Source: Actinomycetes bacterium (GTDB lineage: Bacteria > Actinomycetota > Thermoleophilia > RBG-16-64-13). Taken from it: a stretch of 32,099 nucleotides of DNA. A model generated the notes under the pieces. That model worked only from the letters and a program-made list of their open reading frames with translations, did not search any database and was not told where the DNA came from. Where the stretch lies: positions 1 to 32,099 of the forward strand of contig JAJZQZ010000012.1 in the NCBI GenBank assembly GCA_021802965.1. The letters are read 5' to 3'. This document shows positions 17,038 to 31,256 of the stretch, in pieces. Both the position numbers and the translations under genes were made by a program. Numbering within the stretch: position 1 is the first letter of the stretch; each line of letters begins with the position of its first letter.

Positions 17038-17442
17038 TCACTTTGCATCCGCCTGCCGGCCCACCCCCTGAAGCAGGAGCCGCAGTGACTCACCGACCCG
17101 CTCCTGATCCGCCGATCCGAGTCGCCCGATCTGCCGGAGGATGAAGCGCTCATCGAGGGTGAAGAGCTTCATGCGCACGACCGAAGGTGCGCTCAACCCG
17201 GCGGAGGAGAGTCCCTCGATGGCCGCGTCCAGAGGCCACCCAGCGTTTGCCGCGCTGGTGATCATCGCCATGACCGAGTGCCCCGACCCCGACCCGAAGG
17301 TCTCCGCACGAGACAGCACCAGGGCCGGCCGCCTCTTCGCCTTCACTCGATCGGTGAAGGGGAACGGAACCACGACCACGGCCCATCGGTCGAGCCCGCT
17401 GAGACCGCGTTCCTCCCTGGACCCGGCCGGCTCAGAGGTCAC
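17038..17442 (-). CDS. mazF: MazF/PemK-family endoribonuclease toxin
   Basis: This 134-residue protein starts on GTG 17442, overlapping the antitoxin stop by 11 bases; the frame is open upstream, but the overlap fixes the start. The family signature is WAVVVVPFPFTDR followed by KRRPALVLS, with the conserved arginine, and MAMITSA provides the conserved Thr/Ser. MazF toxins cleave mRNA at short sequence motifs. The C-terminal part (RMKLFTLDERFILRQIGRL) is typical of the longer PemK branch. The upstream AbrB-fold gene is the expected antitoxin. Confidence 0.85.
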   Translation of the reverse strand: MTSEPAGSREERGLSGLDRWAVVVVPFPFTDRVKAKRRPALVLSRAETFGSGSGHSVMAMITSAANAGWPLDAAIEGLSSAGLSAPSVVRMKLFTLDERFILRQIGRLGSADQERVGESLRLLLQGVGRQADAK

Positions 17443-17674
17443 CGTATGCCGCCTCGTCGGATTCGGAGAGCCACTCGTCAAGAGTCGTCTCGAGGGCCCG
17501 AGCGAACTCCCTGTCGAGAGGCACGGCACGGCGCAGTGTCACACGATCCCCTTCGATAACGAAGGCGATAACGTCACCTTGCGACAGCCCTAGAAGCTCC
17601 CGGACCGGCGCGGGCACTGTGGCCTGATATTTCTTGGTCAAGCGACTGACGGTGACTCCTTCCTGGCCCACCAA
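17432..17674 (-). CDS. AbrB/MazE-type antitoxin
   Basis: The protein has 80 residues. The swapped-hairpin AbrB DNA-binding domain is at the N-terminus (LTKKYQATVPAPVRELLGL, then GDVIAFVIEGDRVTLRR). The acidic C-terminal tail (LDEWLSESDEAAYGDL) would wrap the toxin. The start is uncertain: TTG 17674 follows a GGGGGG run, and an internal TTG before TKKYQ also has an upstream AGGAAGGAG. The gene lies directly upstream of mazF, with a palindromic operator in front, so autoregulation is expected. Confidence 0.82.
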   Translation of the reverse strand: MVGQEGVTVSRLTKKYQATVPAPVRELLGLSQGDVIAFVIEGDRVTLRRAVPLDREFARALETTLDEWLSESDEAAYGDL

Positions 17675-19348: not shown

Positions 19349-19803
19349 TTGAACGCGGCAACGCTACTTCAGCTGATGACCACCGTGCTCGAACGCGGCG
19401 CGCAGTTCCGCTTCACCGCACGGGGGTCCAGCATGCACCCCTTGATCCGCGACGGCGACGTCCTCACCGTGGAATCGCTCGCCGGCGGTCCCCGCGTCTG
19501 GGCGACGTCGTAGCATTCAGAAGGGACGACGACGGGCGCGTCGCGCTCCACCGCGTGGTTTCTTGCGCCATTCCAGACGGCTTCGTGCTCCGCGGAGACA
19601 ACCTGCCTCAGAGCGACGGCGTGGTCGAACGGGAGAGGATCATGGGCCGAGTGAGCGGGATCGAGAGGAAGGGCCATCGGGTGCGCATGGGAGGAAAGGT
19701 GACCGGAGCCGCCATCGCTGTGGCAAGTCGTCACGGCGTGATCGTGGCGCTACTGGGTGTGTATGGTCGCCGGCGAACGTACTGGCCGGGTCGGACTCCT
19801 TAG
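19349..19803 (+). pseudogene. S26-family (signal-peptidase-like) gene with a frameshift
   Basis: The first frame (TTG 19349 to TAG 19511) encodes FRFTARGSSMHPLIRDGD, the Ser-Met-x-Pro active-site box of S26 peptidases. The rest of the family pattern continues in another frame: RLGDVVAFR, then VALHRVV and FVLRGDN, ending in GRVSGI and a hydrophobic tail at 19803. Restoring one C in the CCCC run near 19490-19493 joins the halves as GGPPRLGDVV. The His of LHRVV in place of the bacterial lysine suggests a Ser-His (S26B/ER-type) enzyme. It is either a pseudogene or a homopolymer sequencing error. Similar small peptidases occur near PqqD/SPASM genes such as those at 21706-23287. Confidence 0.7.
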
Positions 19804-19887: not shown

Positions 19888-19896
19888 TGCTATATT
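19888..19896 (+). promoter_or_regulatory. Extended -10 promoter, leaderless start of the DUF5674 gene
   Basis: TG-C-TATATT ends exactly 7 nt before ATG 19904, so transcription would begin at or next to the start codon. No ribosome-binding site is present, and the -35 region is poor, as expected for an extended -10. Confidence 0.55.
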
Positions 19897-19903
19897 CGAG
19901 CCC

Positions 19904-20245
19904 ATGGAGATCATCGACCACGCCATCACCAAAGCAGACCTGGAGCGGATGGCGCAGGGCATGTTCGGAGATCTGGTCAAGGCCGTCGTCGACGTACGCC
20001 GTGGCGTCATGGCGGTGGATGCCGAGCTGCACTCCGACGAGGAGGCCCTTCTGCTCGAGGACGGTTCCGCGCAGACCGACCTTTGGGGGATCAACATCTA
20101 CCCCGAGCTCGCGGCGGCCGAGATGATCGAGTTCGACTCCATGATCAACATCCGACCTTCACAAGGGAACCGATCGCGCGGGGTCGAAGACCCCCTTATC
20201 CGAGACCGCATCCTTACGGTCGTGCGCTCCCTGGTTTCCGGGTGA
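19904..20245 (+). CDS. DUF5674 family protein
   Basis: This 113-residue protein shows the conserved blocks I associate with DUF5674: MVKAVVD-like DLVKAVVDVRRGVMAVDAE, then LHSDEEALLLEDGS and TDLWGINIYPE, and the C-terminal FDSMINIRPSQGNRSRGVED. The family is widespread but uncharacterised. The strongly kept RPSQGNRSRGVED block with Asn, Arg and acidic residues could form a nucleotide- or nucleic-acid-binding site, but that is inference. It starts on ATG 19904 from a leaderless-type promoter. Its TGA overlaps the next gene in a GTGA junction, so the two products are probably made in fixed ratio. Confidence 0.85.
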   Translation: MEIIDHAITKADLERMAQGMFGDLVKAVVDVRRGVMAVDAELHSDEEALLLEDGSAQTDLWGINIYPELAAAEMIEFDSMINIRPSQGNRSRGVEDPLIRDRILTVVRSLVSG

Positions 20246-20589
20246 ACGCTCAGCACCCAGAGCTGGCGCAGGGCCGGTGGCAGACGCTCCCCCTGATCGA
20301 GCAGCTCGCCAACGTGGGCAGCGAGGTGGAGCGGGCGATCAGCTGGGCAGCGAAAGACAACGACGCGTACAGTGGACGCGCCCTCTACCGGGCGCTCGAG
20401 CTCCTGGAGCTGACGATCGCCGACCCGCGCCATCGCCACCGCCTCAAGGAGCTGACGCGCGTCCGAGAGGCACTCCTCGACTACTTCCTCGGCGACAACG
20501 AGTTCCGGTCGACTCCCGTCAGCTGGCACCGCTACTTTCACCCTTACGGAACGGCCGTGGCGATCAGGAGACACCCGCCCGGCGGTTGA
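20242..20589 (+). CDS. Small helical protein coupled to DUF5674 (unknown function)
   Basis: The protein has 115 residues from GTG 20242. The sequence looks all-helical, with LPLIEQLANVGSEVERAISW, YRALELLELTIADPRHRHRL, TRVREALLDYFLGDNEFRST and WHRYFHPYG. I recall similar small proteins (pattern EQ-x-N-x-GSEV-x-RA, ALELLDLTIADP, YF-x2-Y/F) beside DUF5674 genes in other bacteria, but I cannot name a family. The four-base overlap with DUF5674 indicates they work together, perhaps as a complex. The shape is also compatible with a helical-bundle TA partner, without direct evidence. Confidence 0.72.
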   Translation: MNAQHPELAQGRWQTLPLIEQLANVGSEVERAISWAAKDNDAYSGRALYRALELLELTIADPRHRHRLKELTRVREALLDYFLGDNEFRSTPVSWHRYFHPYGTAVAIRRHPPGG

Positions 20590-20606
20590 CCCCCCTCAAC
20601 CCCGCC
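20581..20606. terminator. Imperfect hairpin spanning two convergent stop codons
   Basis: GGCGG-TTGA (20581-20589) pairs with TCAA (20596-20599) and CCGCC (20602-20606), with a two-base bulge and a CCCCCC loop. It covers the stops of both the 20242 gene and the convergent RES gene. Confidence 0.4.
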
Positions 20607-21060
20607 GCAGCAGTCGCAGATCGGTGACGAACTCCCGGGGCTCACCTAAGGCGACCGACCCAAACGCCGGGTGGAGCGGGTTCAGCAGGTAGTTGGACTC
20701 ATCGGGGACAACGGCGCTCGGGACGGCGAGGACGGCGCTCGACAGCTTTCGCGCCCACGCCGAGCCGATGACCCGCAGCCGCCGGTTCTCTCCCGGGCCG
20801 CGCCAGCCCCGGGGCAGGATGGACGCATCGATCCGCTCCACCTCCAACTCGTCGGGGACAGTGGCCGCGATCAGTACGTAGCGCGCCCGCAACGGGTCGT
20901 CCTGGACCAGCATCTCAAGCATCGCCAGCGCCTGCGAGCCGGAGGTGTAGACCACGGGGATCCCCTTGCGATTCCAGCGGCCCCCGTAAAGCCAGGCGCC
21001 CTCGCCGCTGAAGGCCGAGCCGGCGTACCGTGCCGTCACGAGACGCCAGACCGTGAGCAT
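20596..21060 (-). CDS. RES-domain toxin (NAD-targeting family)
   Basis: This 154-residue protein is a single RES domain. It starts WRLVTARYAGSAFSGEGAWL, followed by YGGRWNRKGIPVVYTSGSQALAMLE, which carries the conserved Arg, Tyr and Glu of the active-site pocket; a late Ser-Asn pair is in PDESNYLLNP. Characterised RES toxins degrade NAD+ or ADP-ribosylate targets. The gene lies 27 bp downstream of a matching Xre antitoxin. No strong ribosome-binding site precedes ATG 21060, so translation may depend on the upstream gene. Confidence 0.88.
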   Translation of the reverse strand: MLTVWRLVTARYAGSAFSGEGAWLYGGRWNRKGIPVVYTSGSQALAMLEMLVQDDPLRARYVLIAATVPDELEVERIDASILPRGWRGPGENRRLRVIGSAWARKLSSAVLAVPSAVVPDESNYLLNPLHPAFGSVALGEPREFVTDLRLLRRG

Positions 21061-21087
21061 CAGACAGGACTCATGGGCAGGCAGGGC

Positions 21088-21543
21088 TCACGCGAAGACC
21101 CCGTGCTCGATACGACCGAGGGTATCCTGCACGCTCTGCGCGCCCACTTCGGTGTCGAGTAGGCTGAAGGGGCTGGCGCCGCCAAGCGCTGCGTTTCGCG
21201 AGTCGAGCCAGTCGAGGGCGACATCGAGAGACTCGAAGACCTCCGCCGCCCGCGCCACGAGGCGCGCAAGACGAACGATCTTGTCGGACTCCTCGCTCGT
21301 GAGGGCGCCTTCTCGCTTGCGCCTGACCAGCGTCCGCTCGGAGATGCCCAGGTTCCGCGCGATCTCAGCCTGGGTCAGACCAAGCGAGGCAGTCAGGGCC
21401 TCGACGGTGAGAGCCGGCAGCCCCTTGCGCACGACAATCACCCAGTCGAGCCTCGCCTGCGGTCCCACTCCCAGTGCGGCGCGACCGCCGAGGAGGTTCT
21501 CCACCGTCACGGACTTTCGTTGTTGAGCGGCGGCTCTGGCCAT
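21088..21543 (-). CDS. Xre/ParS/MbcA-type antitoxin of the RES toxin
   Basis: The protein has 151 residues, with AAGGGA upstream of ATG 21543. The N-terminal half has an Xre-like helix-turn-helix (LTQAEIARNLGISERTLVRR). The C-terminal half is the DUF2384/ParS toxin-binding domain (IVRLARLVARAAEVFESLD) and ends RIEHGVFA, which inserts into the toxin active site in solved RES-Xre complexes. It lies first in a two-gene minus-strand operon, the standard order for this system. Confidence 0.88.
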   Translation of the reverse strand: MARAAAQQRKSVTVENLLGGRAALGVGPQARLDWVIVVRKGLPALTVEALTASLGLTQAEIARNLGISERTLVRRKREGALTSEESDKIVRLARLVARAAEVFESLDVALDWLDSRNAALGGASPFSLLDTEVGAQSVQDTLGRIEHGVFA

Positions 21544-21705: not shown

Positions 21706-22041
21706 TCAGCCGCGAACGGCCAAGATCCTCCGCTTCGTCATCTCGACGGCGAAGCCCAGCACGTCTGCTTCGAGACCGCCCGGCGCCGCCTGGTACTCAT
21801 CGGTCAAGGCCGCGGCCACCTCAGCGAGAGTGCGCCTGCCGTCGAGCTTCTGCCATATGGCCTTGCCGGTCTCGTTCAGCGTGTAGAGCTCGTCGTCGGC
21901 GTCGCCGATGCCGGCGACCAGGGGCACGATGATGACATCGCCCTCGATCTCACGAAAGACGACAGCGTCGGAAGGGACGCAGATGCTCTCGAGCGTGACC
22001 TCGGGTCCCGAGACGTCCTCTGCTTTCATGTCGTCGATCAA
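21706..22041 (-). CDS. PqqD-family protein (radical SAM peptide chaperone-like)
   Basis: The protein has 111 residues from TTG 22041, chosen because AGGAGG lies 8 bases upstream; the first ATG (22029) is too far from it. The PqqD fold is seen in VVFREIEGDVIIVPL, DELYTLNETGKAIWQKLDG, RRTLAEVAAALTDEY and the C-terminal VEMTKRRIL. PqqD proteins bind precursor peptides and present them to radical SAM/SPASM enzymes. Here the SPASM gene lies 82 bp upstream on the same strand, so the pair probably acts on one substrate. No precursor peptide is visible nearby. Confidence 0.85.
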   Translation of the reverse strand: MIDDMKAEDVSGPEVTLESICVPSDAVVFREIEGDVIIVPLVAGIGDADDELYTLNETGKAIWQKLDGRRTLAEVAAALTDEYQAAPGGLEADVLGFAVEMTKRRILAVRG

Positions 22042-22123
22042 GACAGCGTCCTCCTGCGACGATAGCTGTGAGCGGACATGCCCGAGCATAGCAGCACGGC
22101 GCCCGAGAGCGCGCGTGGCAGGC

Positions 22124-23287
22124 CTACCCGTCGATCCCCAGCGCCCCGGCCCGGGCATGGGCGACGCGGCAGAAGTAGTCGACCCAAGCATCCATGGAGC
22201 CCGTCTCCAGCGCCGCGTGGGCCGGGCACCACAGACAGAGGTCGACGAGAGAGCAGCGCCGGCACTTCTGCAGGAACTCCGGATCGCTGCCGCGCAGGTC
22301 GCGCACGTGAGGCACCCACTCCACCCAGGCCTCGCGCAGCGTCCCCCGGCGCAGATCGTAGACCGTGTCCGGATGGCAGAGGGAGCTGCAGAGGCGGAAG
22401 GTGCCGTCGTAGCCCACCGTGAAGCTCCCCTGGCCGGCGCCGCAATGGAAGAGGTGGTCGCAGCCGTCATGCTCCCCGCTCGGCTGGAACACCATGCCGT
22501 CGGTGCAGCCCCGCTCCAGGGCGCCGAAGCGCTCCGGGTCCGCCCGCTCTAGGGCCACGAGCTCCTCCGGCGGAAGGCGTTCGGCCTCGATCTCGGCGTT
22601 ACGGACTGCGTCGCCGTCGAAGCGGCCGTGCAGCAGCGGATCGAAGCGATAGAAATCGGCGGTCCGCTCCCGGCAGAACGCGGCGATCTCCGCGAACTCC
22701 CCCAGGTTGGAGCGCAGCGCCATGGCCTTGAACCTCACCTTCACGCCCGCCTCCGCGAGCAGGTCCAGCCCCCGCAGGAACGCGGCGTGCGAGCCCGGCC
22801 GGCGTGTGACCGCCTCGTACGTCTCCCGGGTCACCCCGTACACCGATACCTCGATGTCGCGCGGCGGGTAGGCACGAAAGAGCTCGGCGTGAGCGGGCGT
22901 GACCAGACAGGCATTGGTGAAGACGCCGACCAGCAGCCCCAGCCGCTTCAGGCCCAGGTATATGTCGCCGAAGTCCGCCCGCAGAAGGGGCTCGCCCCCC
23001 GTCAGAAGACACCACACGGCCCCCATGTCCACCGCTTCGCGCCCGATGCCGAGGATCTCGTCGAGGCCGAGTTCCGCGGCGGCAGCGGTGGCGTCCCCGG
23101 AAGGTAGGTTGATGTAGCAGTGCCGGCAGTCGTTGTTGCAGCGGGCGGTGAGCTCCAGGTCGAAGGCGTGTGGCGCACCCTTGGCGGCAAGCTTGCTCCA
23201 CAGCGGGAGTGCCTGGACCGTCATGGACCTACTCGTCGACGCAGAGTTCGCAGCCTCGGCGGGCTCAGGTGTCGGGGAGTCGTCCAT
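22124..23287 (-). CDS. Radical SAM/SPASM enzyme
   Basis: This 387-residue protein has the 4Fe-4S motif C50-x3-C54-x2-C57 (TARCNNDCRHCYINLP) and the SAM-binding block LLTGGEPLLR. The C-terminal SPASM domain has cysteines near 282, 300, 304, 342, 345, 351, 354 and 373 (KCRRCSLVDLCLWCPA), enough for auxiliary clusters. Such enzymes modify peptides or proteins, usually with a PqqD-like partner, which follows directly. The start at ATG 23287 is supported by a promoter 9 bases upstream and the absence of a ribosome-binding site. Substrate unknown. Confidence 0.88.
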   Translation of the reverse strand: MDDSPTPEPAEAANSASTSRSMTVQALPLWSKLAAKGAPHAFDLELTARCNNDCRHCYINLPSGDATAAAAELGLDEILGIGREAVDMGAVWCLLTGGEPLLRADFGDIYLGLKRLGLLVGVFTNACLVTPAHAELFRAYPPRDIEVSVYGVTRETYEAVTRRPGSHAAFLRGLDLLAEAGVKVRFKAMALRSNLGEFAEIAAFCRERTADFYRFDPLLHGRFDGDAVRNAEIEAERLPPEELVALERADPERFGALERGCTDGMVFQPSGEHDGCDHLFHCGAGQGSFTVGYDGTFRLCSSLCHPDTVYDLRRGTLREAWVEWVPHVRDLRGSDPEFLQKCRRCSLVDLCLWCPAHAALETGSMDAWVDYFCRVAHARAGALGIDG

Positions 23288-23393: not shown

Positions 23394-23440
23394 TACGCCA
23401 TGTCCGCTAGATAGGCCAAGCGTCCGCATTGGAGGTAGAG

Positions 23441-23698
23441 GTGCCGACCATACGAGTGGGCCGTCGAGGGCAGGTCACGATACCGTCGGATGTGCGAAGG
23501 GACCTTGATCTTCACGACGGCGATCGCATGTTCCTGCTCGTTCGTGCTGGAGACATCCTGCTGCGCCCTGCCGGCGCTTCTATCTTCTCGCTTCGAGGAA
23601 GTATTCCCGTTACGGGGCCTCAAGACTTCGCGGAGATCCGCAACGAGGTGCTCCGGCTCCGTGCTCAGGGCAAGGCGAACGCCGTCGATGATGAGTGA
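23441..23698 (+). CDS. AbrB/SpoVT-type antitoxin of a PIN toxin
   Basis: The protein has 85 residues from GTG 23441, chosen because GGAGG lies five bases upstream. The DNA-binding domain is typical (VPTIRVGRRGQVTIPSDVRR, then LDLHDGDRMFLLVRAGDILLR). The C-terminal tail is helical and charged (FAEIRNEVLRLRAQGKANA) and is expected to bind the toxin. It overlaps the PIN gene by 11 bases, the standard antitoxin-first order. Confidence 0.85.
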   Translation: MPTIRVGRRGQVTIPSDVRRDLDLHDGDRMFLLVRAGDILLRPAGASIFSLRGSIPVTGPQDFAEIRNEVLRLRAQGKANAVDDE

Positions 23699-24185
23699 CA
23701 AACCCAACGCCGGGGAGCGGGCTCGTCCCGTCGGTCAAGTTCGGTCAGGTCCGATCTTTGTCGACACGAACGTGTTTCTGCGCTTTCTTACCAACGACGT
23801 GCCCGACCAAGCTTCCGCCGCGGAGAGGTTGTTCCAACAGGCGGCGCGCGGGGAAGTCCAGCTGATGACCAACACGATGGTGCTGGCGGAGCTGGTATGG
23901 GTTACGGAGTCGCACTACCGCCTGCCTAAGAGCGGAGTGCATGAACGGGTGCTCGCCATAGTCGGGATGGAGGGGCTGGACGTGCCCGCGCTGGACGTGG
24001 CTCTGGAGGCGCTGCACGACTACGTGGAGAAGAACGTGGACCTCATCGACGCCTACAACGTGGCCTGGGCCCGGAGCCATGCGGTCGACTCCTTCGCCAC
24101 CTTCGACGCCAAACATCTCGGCCGGTTCGAGGATCTCGAGGTCGTGATCCCGGGCCAACGCTTCAGTCCTTCGGCAGCCTCCTAG
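23688..24185 (+). CDS. PIN-domain ribonuclease toxin (VapC-like)
   Basis: This 165-residue protein starts at ATG 23688 (ATG 23691 is equivalent), overlapping the antitoxin gene. Acidic active-site residues are D26 (FVDTNVFLRFL), E68 (LAELVWV), D121 (DLIDAYNVAWA) and D140 (FATFDAKHL), the full PIN quartet. PIN toxins cleave tRNA or rRNA with Mg2+. About 20 non-conserved residues precede the domain. Its 3' end overlaps the decayed SPASM gene on the other strand by 23 bases. Confidence 0.87.
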   Translation: MMSDKPNAGERARPVGQVRSGPIFVDTNVFLRFLTNDVPDQASAAERLFQQAARGEVQLMTNTMVLAELVWVTESHYRLPKSGVHERVLAIVGMEGLDVPALDVALEALHDYVEKNVDLIDAYNVAWARSHAVDSFATFDAKHLGRFEDLEVVIPGQRFSPSAAS

Positions 24186-24573
24186 CTGTGATGCCCGCCT
24201 CTGCCCCCTCCCACCCCAGCTGGCCATCCCGCAGCCAGCCCAGGTGCCGCGCCTGGGCGTGGGCCACCTCGCACAGGTAGTCGACCGGGGTGTCTAGCGT
24301 GCCGTGCTCGCTCCATGATTTGGCCGGGCACTGTTCGCAGAGACCGCGGAGGAAGCACCGCGCGCAGCGGCCAAGGTAGTCGGAGTGGGCCGCACGCATC
24401 TCGCGTAGCTCGGTGAAGCGTTCGAGCGCCGCGGCGAGGGGAGCATCGAGGACGCCCATGGTCAGCTCGGGCGCCCGGAGGGTCAGGCACGGCTGCGCCC
24501 TCCCGTAGGCATCGACGGCGATGCCCCCGCAACCGGCTCCGCACGTGAAGAGGTGGTCGTCGGGCAACGGCAT
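24163..24573 (-). pseudogene. Truncated radical SAM/SPASM protein, C-terminal domain only
   Basis: From MPLPDDHLFTCGAG onward the frame matches the end of the intact SPASM enzyme at 22124-23287. CARCFLRGLCEQCPAK aligns with CRRCSLVDLCLWCPAH, and TPVDYLCEVAHAQA with AWVDYFCRVAHARA. The frame is open further upstream but loses all similarity beyond about 24590, and there is no CxxxCxxC radical SAM core. The 5' half was therefore lost, with the divergent RHH-PIN module starting at 24697 now beside the break. It is a remnant of a second SPASM gene. Confidence 0.75.
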
Positions 24574-24696
24574 GAAGCGGGCGCGCGCAGCTCGACGTGG
24601 ATGGGCGTGGTGTCGTAACCCGGCGAAGGCGACCGTGGCGCCATCGTGGCCCACTGGCGGTCGCGCGCCATACGCATATATGATATCGTGTACGGC

Positions 24697-24933
24697 ATGA
24701 ACGACACCAAGCTCACCGTCCGCCTCCCCCGGGAAACTCTGGACGAGGCCAAGCGCTACGCCCGCGAGCACGACACCAGTGTGAGCCGGTTGGTCATCAC
24801 GCACCTCGAACACCTGCGGCGCACCGATGACCTGCTGGCCGATGCGCCCATCACGCGGCGGCTGGTAGGGGCGCTCGCTCCCGAAGCCACGATCCAGGAG
24901 TACCGGGACTACCTCGAGCGCAAGTATGCCTAA
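24697..24933 (+). CDS. Ribbon-helix-helix antitoxin (DUF6364/VapB-like)
   Basis: The protein has 78 residues from ATG 24697. The N-terminal RHH domain reads KLTVRLPRETLDEAKRYARE followed by TSVSRLVITHLEHL; the C-terminal tail (IQEYRDYLERKYA) would bind the toxin. No ribosome-binding site is seen. TG-A-TATCGT at 24681-24689 ends 7 nt upstream, so a leaderless start is possible. The stop overlaps the PIN gene by 8 bases. Confidence 0.8.
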   Translation: MNDTKLTVRLPRETLDEAKRYAREHDTSVSRLVITHLEHLRRTDDLLADAPITRRLVGALAPEATIQEYRDYLERKYA

Positions 24934-25354
24934 GGGACCCCGGGTCCTGCTCGACGTCAACGTGATCCTCGACGTGCTCCAACGCCGGGAGCCCTTCCTG
25001 GCCGACTCCGCCTCCGTCATGGCCGCCGTTGAATCGGGCCGGTGCGAAGGTCTCATCGCCGCCCACACCGTTACGACTTTGTTCTACCTCATGACAAAGC
25101 ACGCGTCGGCCACGGTTGCGCGCGTCCACGTTATCGAGCTGCTCCGAGTGCTCAAGGTGGCTCAGGTCGACCAGGGGGTGCTGGAGGAAGCTCTGGCCCT
25201 CCCGTATGCCGATATCGAAGACGCCGTGCAGATGGCAGCCGCCGAGCGCGCCGGTGCCGAGTATCTGGTGACGCGCGACCGGGCTGGGTATTCCGCCGGC
25301 CCGTTGCCTACTCTTGCTCCCGGCGAGTTGCTGCCGCTGTTGGGGGGGGCATAG
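24926..25354 (+). CDS. PIN-domain protein, probable toxin of the RHH antitoxin
   Basis: The protein has 142 residues. It starts VLLDVNVILDVLQRREPF, with the first active-site Asp at residue 10. YADIEDAVQMAAAERAGAEY gives the third acidic site and LVTRDRAGY the fourth. The usual glutamate of the second site is not seen in TVTTLFYLMTK, as in one branch of PIN proteins. The organisation (antitoxin first, 8-base overlap) makes it a type II toxin candidate. Confidence 0.82.
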   Translation: MPKGPRVLLDVNVILDVLQRREPFLADSASVMAAVESGRCEGLIAAHTVTTLFYLMTKHASATVARVHVIELLRVLKVAQVDQGVLEEALALPYADIEDAVQMAAAERAGAEYLVTRDRAGYSAGPLPTLAPGELLPLLGGA

Positions 25355-29006: not shown

Positions 29007-29306
29007 ATGAAGACTATCCCCCTGCGGGATTTCCAGCGCGAAGGAGTGAAGGCGCTGGGCGCTGGGTCTTCAACCGAGCCGCTGCTGCTCACCGGCCGCG
29101 ATCGGGAGTTCGTCCTGTTTCAGGTGTCTGCCGACAATCGGACCGCGGTGCTGGACCTTGCCGAGGGTATCGCAGCCGTCTTGGCCTTGCGGGAGGATCA
29201 GGACCGGTCTGTGGAGGCCGGCTTGGATCGACTCTCCACCGAGGACATCGAGGCCGAGATCCGGGATGCGCGGCAGACCATCAGGAGCCGGAAGCGCTCC
29301 GCGTGA
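29007..29306 (+). CDS. Probable antitoxin (Phd-like) of a COG1569-type PIN toxin
   Basis: The protein has 99 residues. The N-terminus (MKTIPLRDFQREGVKALGAG, then EPLLLTGRDREFVLFQVS) resembles Phd/YefM-type antitoxins, and the C-terminal half is acidic and helical (LSTEDIEAEIRDARQTIRS). Family assignment is tentative. The start has a clear ribosome-binding site. The stop overlaps the PIN gene in a GTGA junction, the usual antitoxin-toxin arrangement. Confidence 0.75.
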   Translation: MKTIPLRDFQREGVKALGAGSSTEPLLLTGRDREFVLFQVSADNRTAVLDLAEGIAAVLALREDQDRSVEAGLDRLSTEDIEAEIRDARQTIRSRKRSA

Positions 29307-29716
29307 GTCAAGCCGTCGTCCTGGATACCAACATGCTGGTCTCGGCGGCCCTGAAGCCCGGAAGCGACATCGCCCGCATCCTGGAGCGGGTCTTGCTTCG
29401 GCAGACGCCGGTGTATCTGTGCCCCTCCATCGTGGCGGAATATCAGGAGGTGTTGACCCGACCGAAACTCAGGCCCCGGGGCCTCCCTCCCGCTTGGCTT
29501 CCCCGACTGCTCCAGGTCGCCTTTCATCAGCCGGAACCCGCTCCCTGGCCACTGAAGGGTCCGGATCCAGATGACCTGGTGTTCCTCGCCCTGGCGAAGG
29601 CGAACGGGGCGGTGGTGGTAACAGGGAACCGGGCCCATTTCCCGACGGAGATCCGCGATGGTGTGAAGGTCCTGAGTCCCCAGGAATACGCGGAACGTCG
29701 CATGGCAGGAGAATGA
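29303..29716 (+). CDS. PIN-domain toxin, COG1569-like
   Basis: The protein has 137 residues from GTG 29303 in the GTGA overlap. Active-site residues are D8 (VVLDTNMLVSA), E46 (IVAEYQEVL) and D90/D91 (PDPDDLVFL). The last motif is VTGNRAHFPTEI, with Asn in place of Asp, a common variant in this branch. A 34-codon copy of its C-terminus lies at 31401-31502. Confidence 0.85.
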   Translation: MSQAVVLDTNMLVSAALKPGSDIARILERVLLRQTPVYLCPSIVAEYQEVLTRPKLRPRGLPPAWLPRLLQVAFHQPEPAPWPLKGPDPDDLVFLALAKANGAVVVTGNRAHFPTEIRDGVKVLSPQEYAERRMAGE

Positions 29717-30607: not shown

Positions 30608-31045
30608 TCAGCCGGCGGCGAAGGGATCCTTCACCGTCAGCGCGTCGAACTCCCGACCGTGCTGGAGGTCCTGCGAGTAGAGGGTGCGGCACCCCGCCTC
30701 CAGAGCGGCGGCCACGATGAGGCTGTCGTAGAAGCTGTATCCGGAGCGCTCCTGCACGTCGAGAGCGCGGAGGTAGAGGGCAACGGTGGGCGATACACGC
30801 CACAGCGGAGCCAGGACCTGCTCCACGTAGGCCCGGCAGTCGCCAAGACTCAAGGGCACGCTGAACTTCCGCGTGGCCACGTTCAGGAGCTCCTGGACAA
30901 CCTGGTGGCTCACAACCCCCAGGCGCGTGGTCAGCGCCAGCTCGACCAACTCGCGGGCCTGAGCCTGCTGGACCGGCGAGGTCTCATCGAACGTATAGAC
31001 GAAGATGTTCGTGTCCAGGAAGAACCGGGCGGGACTACCGGGCAT
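30608..31045 (-). CDS. PIN-domain ribonuclease toxin (VapC-like)
   Basis: The protein has 145 residues from ATG 31045, chosen because it overlaps the antitoxin stop by 11 bases and the domain begins at once (ARFFLDTNIFVYTFDE). The acidic quartet is D11, E52 (VVQELLNV), D107 (SFYDSLIV) and D126 (LYSQDLQHG), complete for a PIN nuclease. Confidence 0.87.
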   Translation of the reverse strand: MPGSPARFFLDTNIFVYTFDETSPVQQAQARELVELALTTRLGVVSHQVVQELLNVATRKFSVPLSLGDCRAYVEQVLAPLWRVSPTVALYLRALDVQERSGYSFYDSLIVAAALEAGCRTLYSQDLQHGREFDALTVKDPFAAG

Positions 31046-31256
31046 TGAGTTCCTCTCGGGTGAAACGCCGGCCGGGGTGCGCATATGCGAGCCGTGCCAT
31101 AAGTTCGTGGTATCCGTGGGCCGCCCGCTCCTGCTGCACGAAAGCCGCAAGCCACAGGCGGAACTCAGCGTTCAGCGTGGTGCCGTGCCGTTCGGCCTCT
31201 TCGCGCGCGCGGGCGATGAGCTGCTCCTCCGCACTCAGGGTTATGTTCTTCAGCAT
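31035..31256 (-). CDS. Ribbon-helix-helix VapB-type antitoxin
   Basis: The protein has 73 residues, with GGAG seven bases before ATG 31256. The RHH core is MLKNITLSAEEQLIARARE followed by TTLNAEFRLWLAAF. The tail ending RRFTREELNAR would bind the PIN toxin encoded by the overlapping gene. A near-perfect inverted repeat covers the promoter. Confidence 0.83.
   Translation of the reverse strand: MLKNITLSAEEQLIARAREEAERHGTTLNAEFRLWLAAFVQQERAAHGYHELMARLAYAHPGRRFTREELNAR

What the first reader, a model, noticed from the sequence alone, without database searches (positions are those of the whole stretch)
19888..20589. Leaderless DUF5674 bicistron as a candidate undescribed two-protein system
A DUF5674 gene and an all-helical small protein share a GTGA overlap, an extended -10 lies 7 nt before the first ATG, and a hairpin spans the final stop. 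Both proteins have blocks of very strong conservation as I recall the families, yet neither has a function. Position within a TA-rich zone and fixed stoichiometry make a TA, defence or nucleotide-sensing pair plausible.
Basis: partly seen in the sequence, partly recalled or inferred. Interest (0 to 1): 0.7.

Follow-up and report, generated by a model that had tools for sequence, protein, structure and literature searches.

The report
Undescribed toxin–antitoxin-like DUF5674 gene pair
Two tiny overlapping genes always travel together across more than 20 bacterial phyla and on cyanobacterial plasmids; the second survives without the first but never the reverse, which is what a new kind of bacterial poison-and-antidote (toxin–antitoxin) pair would look like, though nobody has yet tested it at the bench.

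Summary
P1 (DUF5674, window 19904-20245 +) and P2 (20242-20589 +, no known family) share a GTGA overlap. An extended -10 (TGCTATATT) lies 7 nt before the ATG. The hairpin at the last stop is no better than chance.

About 200 DUF5674 genes from Actinomycetota, Patescibacteria, 80 genomes of 24 named phyla and 31 cyanobacterial plasmids have a small P2-type gene directly downstream (exceptions: contig ends, one junction deletion, a few insertions between the two). Neighbouring genes almost never recur, so the pair is a free-standing mobile cassette.

Polarity is clear. P1 keeps 14 near-invariant residues everywhere, while P2 diverges to the random-identity baseline. Intact P2 without P1 (or with a wrecked P1) occurs at 19 loci; intact P1 without P2 at none. 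The leaderless -10 is strongly enriched over control genes (odds ratios 8-13); leaderless mRNA typifies TA pairs in M. tuberculosis (PMC3898074).

Best explanation: a reverse-order type II-like TA module, P1 a toxin/enzyme of unrecognised fold, P2 a helical neutraliser. Toxicity, target and binding are untested. No paper held mentions DUF5674 or PF18924. Chromosomal neighbours show no defence-gene enrichment, so the phage-defence reading is weaker.

The parts
19888..19896 (+). Extended -10 promoter element TGCTATATT; predicted start of transcription at or next to the ATG (leaderless mRNA)
   Evidence: Sequence; the same element at similar spacing recurs upstream of P1 in many phyla
19904..20245 (+). 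P1, DUF5674 protein, 113 aa; proposed toxin/effector. Carries all 14 superfamily-wide conserved residues (K26 D30 H43 E47 L50 G54 S55 Q57 W61 G62 S79 N82 P85 N89)
   Evidence: Pfam PF18924 E 3e-37; conservation; AF2 model pLDDT 88, no PDB or BFVD match
20242..20245 (+). GTGA overlap of the P1 stop and the P2 start (translational coupling inferred)
   Evidence: Sequence; -4 overlap in 51 of 80 relatives and 14 of 23 divergent Patescibacteria
20242..20589 (+). P2, 115 aa five-helix protein without a known family; proposed antitoxin/neutraliser
   Evidence: No Pfam/NCBIfam/PADLOC/PHROGs family; AF2 pLDDT 94, helices 6-15, 18-37, 41-59, 62-83, 92-110; always downstream of P1

Best explanation
The two genes form a free-standing, horizontally moving toxin-antitoxin-like module in 'reverse' order (effector first). 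P1 (DUF5674) is the conserved effector: a small alpha/beta protein with a cluster of invariant polar residues (K26, D30, H43, E47, Q57, S79, N82, N89) that looks like an active site, so most likely an enzyme that harms the cell when free, plausibly by acting on RNA or nucleotides. P2 is a small helical bundle made from the overlapping gene on the same, probably leaderless, transcript; it binds and blocks P1, perhaps through the near-invariant arginine-bearing helix (R31 in the window). Shown: gene pair, architecture, universal linkage, patchy spread, plasmid carriage, loss asymmetry. Inferred: that P1 is toxic, that P2 neutralises it, the direct contact, the enzyme nature and the target.
For: Linkage: in 297 Actinomycetota genomes P1 is in 17 and P2 in 16 of the same 17, directly downstream; the 17th lies at a contig end. 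80 of 80 loci from 24 named phyla have P2 next to P1 (one, L078, carries a junction deletion; one, L066, an 883 nt insert), as do all 64 P1-positive Patescibacteria genomes out of 240 and the P1 places on 31 cyanobacterial plasmids. Loss asymmetry: 19 loci with intact P2 but P1 missing or broken (L043 twice, L126-L130, L135, L137, L139-L141, L225, L218-L223), none the other way. Polarity: P1 stays at 0.34-0.38 identity to the window in distant lineages with 14 universal residues; P2 falls to 0.22 against a shuffled 0.21. Mobility: 413 neighbour proteins fall in 371 clusters; tRNA genes within 350 bp at 9 of 50 loci against 2.5 expected; conjugative plasmids; P1 and P2 distances correlate, Mantel r 0.57. 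Leaderless -10 enriched over control genes in and outside Patescibacteria, odds ratios about 13 and 8; in M. tuberculosis 32 of 37 TA pairs with a primary TSS are leaderless (PMC3898074). Reverse order is known for rnlAB, mqsRA, higBA and hicAB (PMC7167474).
Against: No growth or binding experiment exists. P1 matches no known toxin fold. P2 has no DNA-binding domain, and upstream regions show no excess of palindromes, so the autoregulation typical of type II TA is not seen. Copy number per genome is usually one, whereas many TA families are multi-copy. P2 of the main family has its own invariant polar residues (E28, R31, R50, E53, E70, R73, E76), which could mean it is more than a passive inhibitor.
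Confidence: 0.6

Rival explanations
1. An accessory enzyme and its dedicated chaperone or subunit: P1 is a non-toxic enzyme or binding protein that needs P2 for folding or activity, carried as a horizontally moving accessory trait.
For: Universal linkage and overlap fit obligate complexes; the best, weak, fold match of P2 is the flagellin chaperone FliS (E 0.75, prob 0.8); usually one copy per genome; chromosomal neighbours are ordinary genes.
Against: A chaperone or subunit should not be kept alone so often while its client is lost (19 intact orphan P2 loci); leaderless TA-like architecture; plasmid carriage; P2 diverges to background identity while P1 is held, unusual for an enzyme subunit.
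Confidence: 0.2
2. A two-gene anti-phage or anti-plasmid defence system in which P1 is an effector held in check by P2 until infection is sensed (a functional overlap with TA).
For: Some cyanobacterial plasmid copies sit beside DpdE, NERD, VPA1262-family, helicase, HNH or reverse-transcriptase genes; the window copy sits among several TA modules.
Against: PADLOC models miss both proteins; PADLOC hits are no commoner in 127 adjacent genes than in 127 genes more than 6 kb away, as far as the truncated tallies show; no phage record carries either gene and only one IMG/VR contig does.
Confidence: 0.13
3. Reverse polarity: P2 is the toxin and P1 the conserved antitoxin.
For: P2 of the main family has invariant polar residues; antitoxin-first is the commoner TA order (PMC7167474).
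Against: Intact P2 persists without P1 at 19 loci whereas intact P1 never persists without P2; P1, not P2, is the conserved partner across lineages.
Confidence: 0.06

Closest known systems
Reverse-order type II toxin-antitoxin modules (HigBA, HicAB, MqsRA, RnlAB; PMC7167474)
   Same: Two small co-directional genes, first gene the presumed toxin, mobile and patchy, plasmid-borne copies, presumed neutraliser gene survives alone
   Different: Neither protein is related to those families; no DNA-binding domain in P2 and no palindromic operator seen
Leaderless TA pairs of Mycobacterium tuberculosis (PMC3898074)
   Same: Leaderless start of a TA-like gene pair in Actinomycetota; there 32 of 37 TA pairs with a primary TSS are leaderless
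   Different: Here the leaderless signal recurs in unrelated phyla, notably Patescibacteria; predicted from sequence, no TSS data
Pfam DUF5674 (PF18924)
   Same: P1 is a full-length member (E 3e-37)
   Different: The family has no function; its partner P2 is in none of the libraries searched
HEPN-MNT (type VII) TA systems
   Same: Small all-helical protein encoded next to a small alpha/beta protein
   Different: P2 has no conserved Rx4-6H motif (its only conserved His is H5) and P1 gives no nucleotidyltransferase match
FliS-type helical chaperones
   Same: Helical bundle of similar length (best but non-significant Foldseek match)
   Different: E 0.75 only; no flagellar context

Membership tests
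Type II toxin-antitoxin system | Two small adjacent, usually overlapping co-directional genes with a fixed partner | tested here: met
   -4 overlap in most
Type II toxin-antitoxin system | Mobile, patchy distribution, plasmid carriage | tested here: met
   17/297 Actinomycetota, 64/240 Patescibacteria, 31 plasmids, non-recurring neighbours
Type II toxin-antitoxin system | Antitoxin can exist alone, toxin cannot | tested here: met
   19 intact orphan P2 loci, 0 intact orphan P1
Type II toxin-antitoxin system | Toxin inhibits growth; antitoxin neutralises it by direct binding | not testable with these tools
   Needs expression and pull-down; complex modelling was not available
Type II toxin-antitoxin system | Autoregulation by a DNA-binding antitoxin at an operator | tested here: inconclusive
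   No DNA-binding family in P1 or P2; no excess of inverted repeats upstream
Known TA toxin families (RelE/ParE, MazF, PIN, HicA, RES, Fic and others) | Sequence or fold match to the family | tested here: not met
   Only PF18924 in Pfam, none in NCBIfam; no PDB or BFVD fold match at E<=0.001
HEPN-MNT | Rx4-6H motif in the helical partner; nucleotidyltransferase partner | tested here: not met
   P2 conserved columns hold no such motif; no nucleotidyltransferase match in P1
Known anti-phage defence systems (PADLOC) | Match to a PADLOC model | tested here: not met
   0 families at E<=1
DUF5674 (PF18924) | Above the curated cut-off over the full length | tested here: met
   127 bits against a cut-off of 27, profile positions 2-108 of 109

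The most novel reading that the evidence does not exclude
DUF5674 is a previously unrecognised toxin superfamily with its own fold and active site, paired with an ultra-fast-diverging helical antitoxin superfamily; it is one of the most widespread TA kinds in uncultured bacteria (about a quarter of the Patescibacteria genomes sampled), is expressed as a leaderless mRNA across phyla so that it can be translated when normal initiation fails, and orphan P2 genes serve as anti-addiction immunity against incoming plasmids.
Probability: 0.3. Interest if true: 0.85.

Novelty: new variant of a known kind. Interest (0 to 1): 0.7.

Why it matters
It would give a function to an uncharacterised Pfam domain and to an unnamed partner family, add a TA kind common in the least cultivated bacteria, and offer a natural test of why TA operons are leaderless. 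It is directly testable with cheap laboratory-strain assays, and the orphan P2 / paired P1 sets listed here provide ready-made cross-neutralisation experiments.

Tried and rejected
Hairpin at the final stop: no better than shuffles. Operator palindromes upstream: no excess. Defence-island enrichment of chromosomal copies: none seen over genes more than 6 kb away (the tool lists only the top 25 families, so this is a coarse comparison). Phage carriage: none in GenBank phages, one IMG/VR contig. Solved structures by sequence or profile: none (a 0.0012 hit of P2 to a designed repeat protein is not supported by the profile search). Fold search: P1 no match, P2 only weak FliS. A second DUF5674 in the window's own genome (39% over 47 aa): not supported by the family model, so taken as chance. 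Alternative toxin beside orphan P2 genes: none obvious upstream; stub ends of P1 remain in L127, L140, L141. That P1s without a recognisable P2 in 23 Patescibacteria genomes refute the pairing: rejected, all these loci have a small ORF (78-112 aa, one longer) right after P1. A fusion in L078: it is a junction deletion hitting both genes.

Full report
WHAT IS THERE. The window is contig C119 of a 3.2 Mb, 78%-complete assembly. Its phylum is Actinomycetota by inference: same-phylum contigs (for example lengths 33668, 31130 and 17844) coincide with named Actinomycetota records. It carries P1 at 19904-20245 + (113 aa) and P2 at 20242-20589 + (115 aa), overlapping by GTGA. P1 is DUF5674, PF18924, E 3e-37; P2 matches nothing in Pfam, NCBIfam, PADLOC or PHROGs. 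TGCTATATT at 19888-19896 leaves 7 nt to the ATG. Downstream and convergent is a RES-Xre TA pair (20596-21543 -). The hairpin over the last stop is not better than shuffles.

CO-OCCURRENCE. In 297 Actinomycetota genomes DUF5674 is in 17 and P2 in 16 of the same 17, directly downstream; the missing one (G233) ends at the contig edge. A scan of the species-representative genome collection returned at least 558 relatives; the best 80, from 24 named phyla plus unplaced bins, all have P2 next to P1, one with an 883 nt insert between them (L066) and one (L078) with a deletion across the junction that damages both genes. In 240 Patescibacteria genomes P1 is in 64; 41 of them have a P2 that the P2 profile finds next to P1, and the P1 loci of the other 23 genomes have a small ORF right behind P1, usually with the same 4-nt overlap, though its sequence is mostly unrecognisable. 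On cyanobacterial plasmids (31 records, 38 places, 16 records typed conjugative) the P1 places are followed by a ~118 aa protein.

ONE P2 SUPERFAMILY. The cyanobacterial P2s are probably distant relatives of the window's P2: the P2 profile scores one of them (L126) at 16 bits, while the best of 950 shuffled sequences scores 7.8, and the two profiles align co-linearly (hhalign E 0.0022, though the reported probability is only 13%). One divergent Patescibacteria P2 (L201) matches the cyanobacterial profile (E 2e-5). By eye, nearly all P2s share an N-terminal helix of the form [DNE][ILMV]xR, with the arginine at R31 in the window (alignment). Homology is likely but not proven for every divergent P2.

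POLARITY. P1 holds 14 positions at 90% or more over 111 sequences of three lineages, among them K26, D30, H43, E47, Q57, W61, S79, N82 and N89; P2 identity to the window in the distant lineages equals the shuffled baseline (0.22 against 0.21) while P1 is 0.34-0.38. Within the main family P1 is also the better conserved (mean pairwise identity 0.58 against 0.50). Loss is one-sided: intact P2 with P1 frameshifted, truncated, deleted or absent at L043 (two P2 copies), L126, L127, L128, L129, L130, L135, L137, L139, L140, L141 (plasmids), L225 (actinobacterium G170, in-frame deletion of the P1 core) and L218-L223 (Patescibacteria); 19 loci, a few of them probably related (for example L129/L130). 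Intact P1 with P2 lost: none found. Both wrecked: L142; P2 wrecked and P1 absent: L132, L133, L136. This is the pattern expected if P1 is harmful without P2.

MOBILITY. 413 neighbouring proteins fall into 371 clusters; tRNA genes lie within 350 bp at 9 of 50 loci against 2.5 expected; the P1 tree mixes phyla, with starred branches forcing at least two changes for Actinomycetota and for Acidobacteriota (113 columns, so many forks are unresolved); P1 and P2 distance matrices correlate (r 0.57, none of 2000 permutations above 0.15), so the pair appears to move as a unit. Defence genes are not visibly enriched beside chromosomal copies, although several plasmid copies lie in defence-like surroundings.

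LEADERLESS ARCHITECTURE. An extended -10 ending 4-10 nt (mode 6) before the P1 start is found in 27/81 loci against 39/680 control ORF starts on the same contigs (OR 8.2, p 8e-12); within Patescibacteria 40/74 against 18/214, outside 16/59 against 21/466. Control starts were the first ATG of each ORF, so the control rate may be somewhat underestimated. The element is not seen on the cyanobacterial plasmids (1 of 9). In M. tuberculosis 32 of 37 TA pairs with a primary TSS are leaderless (PMC3898074), so the feature itself is TA-like, at least in Actinomycetota.

STRUCTURE. P1: pLDDT 88, strands 2-4, 25-30, 35-38, 60-65, 75-77 and helices 10-20, 43-52, 97-110, with a low-confidence loop around the conserved NIRPSQGNR; no significant match in PDB or BFVD. 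P2: pLDDT 94, five helices, only weak similarity to FliS. The conserved polar set of P1 suggests an active site, but neither reaction nor target can be named from these data.

MECHANISM. Best reading: a single leaderless mRNA yields P1 then P2 by coupled translation; P2 sequesters P1; loss or shortage of P2 frees P1, which harms the cell. Shown: architecture, linkage, mobility, asymmetry. Inferred: toxicity, neutralisation, binding, enzymatic nature.

NOVELTY. No paper in the library names DUF5674 or PF18924, and public plasmid annotation calls P2 'hypothetical protein'. The library holds no preprints and few subscription papers, so an earlier description elsewhere cannot be excluded. Verdict: a new variant of a known kind (TA-like two-gene module) with two families not previously linked to TA as far as could be searched.

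Noticed in passing
window 19376-19803 +: Signal-peptidase/S24-like reading frame just upstream appears frameshifted: N-terminal half (MTTVLERGAQFRFTARGSSMHP...) and C-terminal half (LGDVVAFRRDDDG...) lie in different frames, joined around 19505-19515. Could be a sequencing error or a pseudogene.
   Followed up: partly
window 17041-17674 -, 20596-21543 -, 23429-24182 +, 24646-25351 +, 29303-29713 +, 30611-31150 -: Dense run of TA genes: MazEF, RES-Xre, MazE-PIN, DUF6364-PIN, and two further PIN genes, interleaved with polysaccharide genes.
   Followed up: partly
window 21706-23287 - and 24163-25068 -: Radical SAM protein (22127-23287) beside a PqqD-like reading frame, and a second SPASM-like C-terminal fragment at 24163-25068 next to the DUF6364-PIN pair: possibly a RiPP-type maturase cluster broken by a TA insertion (PqqD and SPASM read by eye).
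   Followed up: no
L068, L069, L084, L089 (Parcubacteria-type genomes): In these loci the pair lies directly behind a gatC gene and, in three of them, directly before a gene in the position of gatA (GatC x4, Amidase x3 among neighbours), i.e. apparently inside the Glu-tRNA(Gln) amidotransferase operon.
   Followed up: partly
L042 3648-3986, L135 1853-2194, L134 1820-2161, L143 1864-2211: A subset of Nostocales copies has a conserved third gene (~113 aa, MTQPxLPQPKLExxGIT...) right behind P2, also where P1 is gone.
   Followed up: partly
L138 619-2875 and L040 3691-4899: A TnpB gene sits between intact P1 and P2 in Nostoc sp. ATCC 53789 (L138), and one directly follows P2 in Trichormus variabilis (L040).
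   Followed up: partly
L098 and L112 (WOR-3 UBA2258); L119 17218-17411: Two full copies of the pair in one WOR-3 genome; a fragment (end of P1 plus start of P2) of a second copy near the contig end in an actinobacterial genome.
   Followed up: no
L124 9995-10678: The only viral-collection contig (IMG/VR, 33 kb) with the pair; a 13-bp-arm inverted repeat lies over its P1 start. Whether the contig is truly viral was not checked.
   Followed up: no
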